This document shows, piece by piece, positions 18,425 to 23,600 of a stretch of DNA of 64,000 nt. Below the pieces are notes generated by a model. The model was not told the origin of the DNA and did not search any database. It worked only from the letters and a program-made list of their open reading frames with translations. The first letter of the stretch is position 1, and each line of letters starts with the position of its first letter. The stretch lies in assembly GCF_020921035.1 (NCBI RefSeq), contig NC_063155.1, positions 19,487,311 to 19,551,310 on the forward strand. The letters are read 5' to 3'. Origin of the DNA: Rhodamnia argentea. Taxonomy: Eukaryota > Streptophyta > Magnoliopsida > Myrtales > Myrtaceae. The translations under genes were made by a program, and so were the position numbers.

Positions 18425-18431
18425 CTTTCCT

Positions 18432-19127
18432 TGTGATCTAGACAGAAACAAAAAGAAGAAGTGAGACTCAGCAATCAGGCAAGCTTAAACAAAGAAAGAA
18501 ACACCACATGAACAAATGGTCGTTCTCAAATGGTGAAAGGTAAACATAAATTAACCCACGAAAACAAAGAAATGAAGCATAAAGAAACTGTGAAGAAATC
18601 AACAACTAAAGCAGGAACACGGGTTCAAAAGAAGCCGCAAAGTCAACAGACTGACAATACGCAAGCAATTTCAAACTCCTGTTGATGACCCAGTTCCAAT
18701 AATATGCAAATTTCAGATCTTATGTTAGAAAAACCTGCTCTATCGGAACAAATCAGACTACATCTAAGCAAACCCATCTCCTCTCCCTTCGATCGAGGAA
18801 CTCAAAACCTAGTCAACGAGTGTAGCTCCACACATAAACACAGAGACAGTATCCCAACTCGGAGCTCTTTCCGTAGCAACGGAATCGCAGCATTCGCAAC
18901 AATCAGAAACAGAAGTCTCCATTCTTCAATCAAGACCAGATCTTTCAGGACCAAACTGATCGACCCCACAACAAGCACAAGTACATCCGATCAAGGTCAT
19001 CAAAAGAGAGGAAAAATGGCAAGGAAGAATGATCCAACACAGCATGTCAGCGTCAACCGCTGAAATGGCGATCTCAGACAGTAGAACTTGAGTAAGATAG
19101 AACTGAAGCTACCTCAGAGCACCCCTT
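18432..19127 (-). promoter_or_regulatory. miR398-like target site spanning the spliced 5' UTR junction
   Basis: The first leader exon ends (19127..19113) with AAGGGGTGCTCTGAG, followed by the donor gtagct. The second leader exon starts (18437..18432) with ATCACA after the acceptor gtctag. Joined, these 21 bases match the complement of miR398 except at three positions (two adjacent central ones and one near the 5' end of the miRNA). Arabidopsis CSD1 carries its miR398 site in the 5' UTR as well. The site lies eight bases upstream of the start codon in the mature mRNA. Confidence 0.8.
18438..19112 (-). other. SOD 5' UTR intron
   Basis: A 675-bp leader intron with donor gtagct and acceptor tttctgtctag, upstream of the CSD1 start codon. 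Plant CSD1 genes commonly have such a leader intron. The open frame on the opposite strand (18704-19063) is not supported as a gene. Confidence 0.75.
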
Positions 19128-19216
19128 CTTGAGAGATAACGACACGCAGCGAAGAAAGACTCTGAAAGAGCAAATGCGTGGAGAGAGAAGACAGATTTTT
19201 TGTGGGGGAAATCTCG

Positions 19217-19228
19217 CTCTTATATAGT
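19217..19228 (-). promoter_or_regulatory. TATA box of the SOD gene
   Basis: Minus-strand ACTATATAAGAG. Transcription would start about 30 bp downstream, near 19190, giving a short first leader exon ending at 19113. Confidence 0.65.
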
Positions 19229-20615: not shown

Positions 20616-23600
20616 ATGCGATCCTTGGAAGAAGCTGTCGGCTCCGCAGTCTCGATTTCGCGGCATGGCGACCTCAATACCGCCGTCGGGGGAGGTTTCG
20701 TCGGCCGGAACATGTACGGTTGGCTTTTCGAGTGCCATGGGTTCTGGCACAACGTGTTGCTGATCACGTCCTCGCTTGCGTTCGCTCTTTACTTGGCCGC
20801 TCAGGCGAGGAAGAGCTTCTCGAAGCTGTCGAGCGGGAGGTCGTCCATTATGATAGCCTATTACGGTTGCCTCTGGCTCGTTAGCTTGCTCAACCTGACT
20901 TGGTGCTCTTTGCAGGTGATTATTGTTATTAACCCGTCACTGTTTAAGATTTGAAGTGGGTTTGTGGATGGAATCAAGTTGGTGCATTTGTTCCAGCTTG
21001 TTATTGCGCTTGAGCGGAACTTTTAAGCATAGCGCTTTTACGAAATTTGCATTGTTTTAAGATGATGAAATGCTAAAGTTGCTTGCAAGTTCGAGTCTTC
21101 AGTTTATTGGTGTAGCTTTTACGGTGAGGGTTTTGGAGTGTCTTGTGCCGAAGTGTAAAGGAAGTTTGGACTCCTGGATTTTTGGTACGAGGTGGTTGCG
21201 GTGCTAAATGGCAAAAGAACTAGTCAGAATGGTGAACATAGGATGACTTGAATTGGCGATGGTAAAAATAGAATGGCCTTTCATTCGATTTTCTGAGGTC
21301 GTCTAAGAAGCGAATACAGACTATTCAAACACATTCTCTGTTGTTTGGGGTGCTAAAGGCAAAATTCTAAATGCCTAATTATTTCCATAGAAGGCCACCT
21401 GTAACTCTCTTGGCATGCTGTGCTCTTCATATGTAAATTTTTTCCTACTGCTAATATGCCTGAGATGGGTATTACTGATGGTGTGTAAATGGATGGCCAG
21501 TTGAGCGAAAGAACAATCCTAAACTCGTAATTGTCTGAATACTGTAATTATGGACAGACAAATGCTTATGTTACTCTTGAAAATTGAAATACTGACATAA
21601 TTTCGGATAGTCCTTAATCATCATTTGAGATTTAAGTATATAAGGAATCTGCTTGTCAATGATGACAGTTTGGTGAAAAGTCCATACTTGTCGCTGTGAA
21701 AGCTTCTAGTTATCTCCATCCATGGTTGATTGTATCCCAACCAACACCAAAACAACTCAATATGTCATGAGCCACGCAATAGCATTCTCAAGCTCTGGGT
21801 ATCGACCCCACTCCCCTGTCCTAATGCTTCCCTAGTTAGGTCCCACGTCAACTGTATGGCACTCTTAAGTCATTGTTGAACTTTATGAAGTCAAATTCTT
21901 AAGGGAAGTAGTAAGCCTAAACCGAGGAATATTCAACAGTTGGCAGCTGCAAAGCCAATTCACCATTGGTCATCCACATCATGGAAAGAGAACAAAACAG
22001 GATGAAGAAAACTTTCTAAAAAGTTCATTTAAGTTGCTGGATAAAGTGCCAGTGACTACTGGCATTGATATTTCTATGCTAAAGGGCATGGAATTCATGC
22101 CAATTGGAAGTTGTTGAAGAAATGTGTTGACACTTAAGGCAATTAACAACAGCCTTACTGGTTCAAAAATTTGGCTAGGCAATGAGATTTTTAGATTAGG
22201 TGGCTAAGGACTAAGGAACAGCGAAGATAAGAGTCTTAAACCATCTAAAAACATAATACAAGAAAGAGAAAACTTGAAAATATGTCAACCAAACATGCTT
22301 TCATAGTTTTTGAATCTATTTTGAGTTTCCAAAATGGAAAAAAAGTTCATTTTCGTGAATTAACACGAAGAGAACATGAAAGTGGAAACAAATTGAATAA
22401 GTTCTCTATTAACTGGGTAATTCTGTAATTGCTTATCTGCTACCATGCTACTCAGTTGTACGGAGGTGATATATGCCCTATGTCTACAAGACATAACATT
22501 GGACTGGTTGTGGGTGTCGGCACACTTATCTCAAACTCAATAGTTGCAGGTTCGTGTCTTATTGCAGAACTACAATTAATTTAAGTCTCAATAGCCAAAA
22601 TAAGTGAAGAAAGATAATGAGAACATTTGAAGGACAACGGTGAATACCCTGTTGAAGTTATCAACACTCAAGCAGCTTTGCTTTTTTGTAGATGCATGTG
22701 TATTAATTCTGTTTTCTTATGACCAAGTTGTGATGTTCAAAATTTTTCTATCCATCTCTAGTCCTTGTATTGCACATTTTATTCCTAGAAGAGTCAAGTC
22801 ATGATACATATCACTACTCGACAACAATATCTGAGTTTTAAGTAACATAGATCTGTACTTTGAGGGACCTTTCATTGCTTTATGAATGCTTGATCAGCTC
22901 TTTTGTTGACAAAGGCATGGGAATGCACTCCTGGGAATGAAGTAGCCTGGAACATCTTGTCTTTGTTTACGTCGTCTGGAATGCTTTTTCTCGAAGTAAG
23001 CTTGGTGGCTTTCTTGCTTCAAGGGAACTCGGCAAGCGGGTTGCATGCACTTACTCGCACATTTGTTGTCTCGGGGCTCATTGTTGGTTTGGATCTTCTT
23101 CTTAAGGTAATGTTTTGCCTTTTGGAATATACAAACTGTCTCCATGTTCCTCCTCCTGACTGAAGAAGCAGGTTGAAGCACACCATCTTCTTCCCTTTTG
23201 TGCATCCTGCTTTGTGTCTTCTGATGGAACAAATTTATTTGCAATGAGCGATACAAGAGATGTGCGTTCACTTTTCAAATCATACATGGGAAACAATCAT
23301 CTTTCAAGCCCTATGAGACCTGAAGGTTATGAAATGACCTGTTGCATTTGTTTGTTTTTTGTTGTTATGATCTTTGTCAGATTTTCTTTCTCTTTATTAT
23401 TGGGTAATATTATGTCTCTGGAGATTGATTTTTGGTTCCTCATGGTTTCTATTTCAGGCAATTTATCTTTTTGGATTTGGAATCCCTTTGTTTATCGACG
23501 ACATTGAAAGTCCTCATAAGGTTAAATGGGGATTGTGGGTAGTCCACCGACTAGTGCTTACTGGAGTTTATGGTTCTATATTGTTCATGTATCACTCCAG

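What the first reader, a model, noticed from the sequence alone, without database searches (positions are those of the whole stretch)
18432..19127. miR398-type target site created by splicing of the SOD leader intron
AAGGGGTGCTCTGAG ends one leader exon and ATCACA begins the next; only the spliced mRNA carries the 21-nt site. It differs from the perfect miR398 complement at three positions, two of them adjacent in the centre near the slicing site. Arabidopsis CSD1 also has a 5' UTR miR398 site. Splice dependence means intron retention would free the transcript from miR398, and the central mismatches could weaken slicing in favour of translational repression. It ends eight bases before the start codon.
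Basis: partly seen in the sequence, partly recalled or inferred. Interest (0 to 1): 0.7.

Follow-up and report, generated by a model that had tools for sequence, protein, structure and literature searches.

The report
Splice-assembled miR398 site in CSD1
In this plant's copper/zinc superoxide dismutase gene, the docking site for a copper-sparing microRNA is cut in two by an intron, so only the spliced messenger carries it; this looks like a conserved, already described kind of control rather than a new one.

Summary
On the minus strand, AAGGGGTGCTCTGAG (19127-19113) ends the leader exon. A 675-nt GT-AG intron (19112-18438) follows, and ATCACA (18437-18432) opens the next exon, seven bases before the CSD1 start codon. 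A second CSD1 on another contig has the same 21-nt site split at the same junction, although its 990-nt intron aligns no better than shuffled sequence and synonymous sites have diverged (dS 0.56). The genome encodes miR398: one MIR398 hairpin above Rfam's cut-off and one weaker candidate. No shuffled leader reached the observed split-site score (0 of 200).

The site is miR398-type and needs splicing. However, the "central mismatches" are one G:U pair at position 12 and one mismatch at 13. Positions 9-11, around the slicing bond, are paired, so cleavage is the default expectation. Intron retention would break the site but leave 11 upstream AUGs, a poor route to more enzyme. Splice-dependent miR398 sites in CSD1 are already reported for peanut and soybean, and cited for Arabidopsis. 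I file this as a well-supported new instance of a known kind. No expression data were available.

The parts
19220..19226 (-). TATATAA, putative TATA box; implies transcription start near 19190 (inferred), upstream of the site
   Evidence: sequence read; start position is inference
19113..19127 (-). 5' 15 nt of the miR398 site (pairs with miRNA nt 7-21, includes the slicing position 10/11), last bases of leader exon
18438..19112 (-). leader intron, 675 nt, GTAGCT..TCTAG; with it retained the leader has 11 upstream ATGs
18432..18437 (-). 3' 6 nt of the miR398 site (pairs with miRNA nt 1-6, part of the seed), first bases of the coding exon
18425..18431 (-). 7-nt spacer AGGAAAG; an AG 8 nt downstream of the intron end (ATCACAAG) is a possible alternative acceptor that weakens the site (5.5 to 8.5); a further AG directly before the ATG was not scored
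16336..18424 (-). CSD1 (cytosolic Cu/Zn SOD) coding region, 7 coding exons (18424-18349, 18259-18158, 18054-17959, 17764-17733, 17617-17542, 16796-16743, 16358-16336), 152 aa, all six introns GT-AG
   Evidence: (Pfam Sod_Cu 174.8 bits)

Best explanation
The spliced CSD1 leader carries a conserved miR398 target site assembled from two exons. When copper is scarce, SPL7-driven MIR398 transcription raises miR398; AGO1-miR398 pairs with the mature mRNA just upstream of the AUG and slices it between the bases facing miRNA nt 10 and 11 (both in the first exon), with possible added block of ribosome loading because the site lies 7 nt from the AUG. Unspliced or alternatively spliced leaders lack the seed half of the site and largely escape. 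Shown here: the sequence, the junction logic, conservation in a paralogue, and the presence of a miR398 gene. Inferred from other plants: splicing in vivo, cleavage, copper response, SPL7 and AGO1.
For: Junction 21-mer is the best of 14,529, and 0 of 200 shuffled regions reach it. Paralogue on C1 has 21/21 identical split site at the same junction while introns (675 and 990 nt) align no better than shuffles (0.776 vs shuffled mean 0.756, max 0.776, 20 shuffles), with 4-fold sites 50 of 77 identical and dS 0.56. MIR398 hairpin on C6 encodes TGTGTTCTCAGGTCGCCCCTG (Rfam RF00695 64.2 bits, cut-off 55; fold z -5.83); 11 GTAC cores in the 1385 nt upstream against 5.4 expected at equal base frequencies. 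Other genes that miR398 targets in other plants have candidate sites too: a CCS-like gene on C3, a CSD2-like gene on C6 with a bulged pairing. Spliced leader has no upstream ATG. Cleavage of CSD1 by miR398 is reported in other plants (passages).
Against: No RNA-seq, degradome or small RNA data here. With the genome's own miR398 the penalty is 5.5 (5.0 with the weaker C5 candidate), above the usual prediction cut-off of about 4 (cut-off recalled); seed position 5 is mismatched. 1 of 200 shuffled miRNAs reaches 5.5 on the paralogue's leader. The unspliced donor side keeps -24.9 of -28.9 kcal/mol. A cotton study placed all its predicted miR398 sites in SOD coding regions, not in a 5'UTR (PMC5429560 passage). 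Transcription start and splice junction are inferred from sequence.
Confidence: 0.86

Rival explanations
1. The site acts mainly by translational repression: bound miR398-AGO1 next to the AUG blocks initiation, with little slicing because of the position 12-13 irregularity.
For: Site lies 7 nt from the AUG; [quoted passage not shown]
Against: Positions 9-11 are paired and position 12 is G:U; the recalled Arabidopsis CSD1 site has the same penalty and CSD1 cleavage is reported; [quoted passage not shown]
Confidence: 0.15
2. The intron split is a regulated switch: alternative splicing (tandem acceptor 8-9 nt downstream, or another site) makes a miR398-resistant CSD1 mRNA under stress.
For: Shifting the acceptor by +8 (A) or +9 (B) weakens the site from 5.5 to 8.5 and 7.5; splice variants without the site are reported in peanut and soybean (passages).
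Against: No isoform data here; the retained-intron leader of A has 11 upstream ATGs and the intron of B has 25, so retention itself is unlikely to raise protein; the soybean paper concludes its regulation was not affected by CSD1 splicing; rice CSD1 is described as not alternatively spliced (PMC8068833).
Confidence: 0.25
3. Chance resemblance: the leader junction is real but not a miR398 target.
For: Penalty 5.5 with the genome's own miR398; 1 of 200 shuffled miRNAs does as well on the paralogue's leader.
Against: 0 of 200 shuffled regions; identical split site in a diverged paralogue; CSD1 is a known miR398 target in other plants.
Confidence: 0.03

Closest known systems
miR398 site in the 5'UTR of plant CSD1 (Arabidopsis, rice, common bean, soybean)
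   Same: Same miRNA family, same gene, same 5'UTR position; rice CSD1 site in 5'UTR (PMC8068833); [quoted passage not shown] same pairing penalty as the recalled Arabidopsis site
   Different: Nothing essential found; pairing at positions 12-14 differs from the recalled Arabidopsis site (G:U at 12 and mismatch at 13 here, mismatches at 13 and 14 there)
Splice variants of CSD1 that lose the miR398 site (peanut AhCSD1-2.2, soybean GmCSD1a-1/b-1; Park and Grabau 2017 itself not held, seen only through passages in PMC9502370 and PMC7674178; soybean from PMC7201782 passages)
   Same: Presence of the miR398 site depends on how the CSD1 transcript is spliced
   Different: Those are reported transcript variants; here the dependence is read from the genome and no escaping isoform was seen. 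The passages do not say which splice event removes the site, and one figure legend (PMC9502370) speaks of mutations in the site instead
miR165/166 site of HD-ZIP III genes, split by an intron (recalled; no call confirms it)
   Same: A plant miRNA site formed only by splicing
   Different: Coding-region site, different miRNA and genes

Membership tests
miR398 target, CSD1 type | Gene encodes a cytosolic Cu/Zn SOD | tested here: met
   152 aa, Pfam Sod_Cu 174.8 bits; PDB matches listed are superoxide dismutases; cytosolic is inferred from the absence of an N-terminal extension
miR398 target, CSD1 type | Site in the mRNA complementary to the genome's own miR398 | tested here: met
   mismatches 5, 13, 21, G:U 12, 15; 9-11 paired; duplex -28.9 kcal/mol, 66% of perfect; penalty 5.5 is above the recalled usual cut-off of about 4
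miR398 target, CSD1 type | miR398 gene present | tested here: met
   L002 RF00695 64.2 bits over cut-off 55; second candidate L016 44 bits, under cut-off
miR398 target, CSD1 type | Cleavage between positions 10 and 11 | not testable with these tools
   needs degradome or RACE
miR398 target, CSD1 type | Site conserved between species | not testable with these tools
   21/21 in one paralogue of the same genome; no other plant genome was available to me
Splice-dependent miRNA target site | Site absent from unspliced sequence, formed by the junction | tested here: met
   unspliced 10.5 (own miR398) and 9.0 (miR398a-type); other nearby junctions 7.5 or worse; by energy the loss is smaller, -28.9 to -24.9
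Splice-dependent miRNA target site | Junction used in vivo | not testable with these tools
   no transcript data; supported by paralogue conservation only

The most novel reading that the evidence does not exclude
The intron is kept inside the miR398 site by selection as a splicing checkpoint: the seed half and the slicing half sit in different exons, so only finished mRNA can be repressed, and a tandem acceptor 8-9 nt downstream, present in both paralogues, gives a short, AUG-free, miR398-resistant leader when CSD1 is needed despite high miR398.
Probability: 0.1. Interest if true: 0.5.

Novelty: new member of a known kind. Interest (0 to 1): 0.25.

Why it matters
It corrects the picture of this site (slicing centre intact, seed mismatch at 5) and shows, within one genome, that a split miR398 site outlived the loss of detectable similarity in the intron that splits it. 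Target predictors that scan unspliced genome sequence would miss it. The paralogue pair gives a ready test of whether splice choice tunes miR398 control of SOD.

Tried and rejected
Rejected: 'two central mismatches near the slicing site' as a reason for weak slicing. Rejected as likely main route: intron retention as a way to make more SOD. Rejected: chance. Led nowhere: viral-contig search with the CSD1 protein gave four viral-contig SODs, 49-51% identical, no plant leaders sought in them; Rfam gathering scan of the window found nothing; text search for six literal site sequences found 0 papers; a search for miR166/PHABULOSA split-site papers listed seven papers, none opened, so that comparison stays recalled; a last search on miRNA sites and exon-exon junctions found nine papers, eight listed, none opened. 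The CSD3-like gene on C10 has no good contiguous site (best 9.0), but I did not run the split-site search on it. Not settled: genome-wide Rfam search for MIR398 and the genome-wide count of the 15-nt half-site (not completed). A Pfam check of the neighbour gene and of CSD2/CSD3 pieces failed on a wrong coordinate and was not repeated; the names CCS-like, CSD2-like and CSD3-like rest on reading translated pieces and recall.

Full report
What is there. The window is part of a 347-Mb genome with 74 contigs; the gene content is that of a flowering plant (inference). The finding lies in a Cu/Zn superoxide dismutase gene on the minus strand. I rebuilt the coding region as seven exons, 18424 to 16336, all six introns GT-AG, giving 152 aa; Pfam Sod_Cu matches at 174.8 bits. 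Upstream, AAGGGGTGCTCTGAG (19127-19113) is followed by a 675-nt intron that begins GTAGCT and ends CTGTCTAG (18438), then ATCACAAGGAAAG-ATG. The sequence TATATAA at 19226-19220 suggests a start near 19190, upstream of the site (inference).

Is it more than chance. I let every GT pair with every AG at least 60 nt away in an 804-nt leader region (TATA box to ATG) and scored all 14,529 junction-spanning 21-mers against miR398 (my own penalty: mismatch 1, G:U 0.5, doubled at positions 2-12). None of 200 dinucleotide-shuffled regions reached that with either miRNA (best 6.5), nor did any of 200 shuffled miRNAs reach 5.5. In the paralogue's 1135-nt region 0 of 200 shuffled regions, but 1 of 200 shuffled miRNAs, reached its score.

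The strongest evidence is the paralogue. A Pfam search of the genome gave 8 Sod_Cu matches, which I read as five genes (such counts are lower bounds): the window's CSD1, one each on C1, C10 and C3, and a second on C6. The C1 gene (L013) encodes a CSD1 identical at 136 of 152 residues (one search prints 137 of 153 with the stop). Its leader reads AAGGGGTGCTCTGAG, then a 990-nt intron that begins GTAGGC and ends TTTTAG, then ATCACAAAGGATAAAATG. The 21-nt site is identical and split at the same place. The two introns align no better than shuffled sequence (0.776 against shuffled mean 0.756, maximum 0.776, 20 shuffles), and the 80 nt upstream of the site is within the shuffled range (0.781; shuffled mean 0.683, maximum 0.828, 50 shuffles). 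Fourfold sites are identical at 50 of 77 and dS is 0.56. At that rate 21 identical bases would be expected about once in 10,000 (0.649^21); part of the identity will be due to splice-site and start-codon constraint, which this figure ignores.

The microRNA is present. One exact TGTGTTCTCAGGTCGCCCCTG lies on C6, about 3 Mb from the window (first 20 nt), in a hairpin that Rfam calls MIR398 (64.2 bits, cut-off 55) with fold z-score -5.83. Eleven GTAC cores lie in the 1385 nt upstream, 5.4 expected at equal base frequencies; the 1000 nt upstream of the presumed CSD1 start have none. GTAC boxes in the miR398 promoter are bound by the regulator SPL7 (PMC7674178 passage). A second locus on C5 (TGTGTTTTCAGGTCACCCCTT) folds as a hairpin and scores 44 bits, under the cut-off. 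A third match within three mismatches is the star arm of the C6 hairpin on the other strand. A CCS-like gene on C3 has a contiguous site (penalty 5.5), and a CSD2-like gene on C6 has a site that pairs well only with a bulge (-28.9 kcal/mol; the two ungapped registers tried score 10.5 and 13.0). These gene names come from reading translated pieces and recall.

Pairing. With the genome's miR398 the site has mismatches at 5, 13 and 21 and G:U at 12 and 15; positions 6-11 are all paired. The site scores the same as the Arabidopsis CSD1 site that I recalled (5.5 and 4.0). Papers, read as passages, report 5'-RACE-confirmed cleavage of CSD1 by miR398 (review PMC9502370) and of soybean GmCSD1a/b (PMC7201782). 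So cleavage is the default expectation. [quoted passage not shown]

Splice dependence. The unspliced donor side scores 10.5 (9.0 with miR398a-type). Of the other donors and acceptors tried one at a time near the junction in both paralogues, none gives better than 7.5 (the AG directly before the ATG of the window's gene was not scored). The nearest are tandem acceptors 8 nt (A) and 9 nt (B) downstream, which replace the part facing miRNA nt 1-6 and give 8.5 and 7.5. By duplex energy the contrast is smaller: -28.9 kcal/mol spliced, -24.9 for the unspliced donor side, -7.8 for the acceptor side. Intron retention leaves a 766-nt leader (from the presumed start) with 11 ATGs; the spliced leader has none. 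The paralogue's intron has 25 and 130 nt of its upstream exon none. Such numbers are ordinary for introns of this length (inference). Retention would therefore escape miR398 in part but probably not make more enzyme.

Prior art. A review passage states that peanut AhCSD1-2.2 loses the miR398 site by alternative splicing and so bypasses miR398, although its figure legend speaks of mutations in the site (PMC9502370); [quoted passage not shown] both cite Park and Grabau 2017, which is not held. Soybean has CSD1 transcripts without the site, though that paper concludes its regulation was not affected by CSD1 splicing (PMC7201782). [quoted passage not shown] Against generality: rice CSD1 is described as not alternatively spliced (PMC8068833), and a cotton study put all its predicted miR398 sites in SOD coding regions (PMC5429560). 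A review passage cites at least 44 of 354 Arabidopsis miRNA sites as affected by alternative splicing (PMC4324062). I opened 12 papers, as passages only; none of the passages names the exact exon junction inside the CSD1 site. Most papers listed by my searches were not opened, so this is no claim that it is unpublished. The kind of control is known.

Verdict. A real, conserved, splice-assembled miR398 site: a new instance of a known kind. What remains open and testable is whether plants use splice choice at this junction to release CSD1.

Noticed in passing
G000:C6 19.5, 21.3 and 22.5 Mb (window; L012; L002): Three likely members of the miR398 regulon, CSD1, a CSD2-like gene and the MIR398 gene, lie within about 3 Mb of each other on one contig.
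   Followed up: no
L002:1411-1431: The star arm of the MIR398 hairpin (CAGGAGCGACTTGAGATCACA) resembles the CSD1 site and shares its odd GATCACA end, including the position-5 mismatch (penalty 4.0). It may be chance or a trace of MIR398 having arisen from a target gene.
   Followed up: no
L016:1491-1608 (minus): Second MIR398-like hairpin whose mature arm differs from the recalled miR398a at position 7 (T for C); Rfam 44 bits, under the cut-off.
   Followed up: partly
window 20616-20915 (+): Divergent neighbouring gene on the plus strand with a 100-codon first coding exon (MRSLEEAVGSAVSISRHGDLNTAVGG..., followed by GTGATT); it looks hydrophobic, perhaps a membrane protein. The family check failed.
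   Followed up: partly
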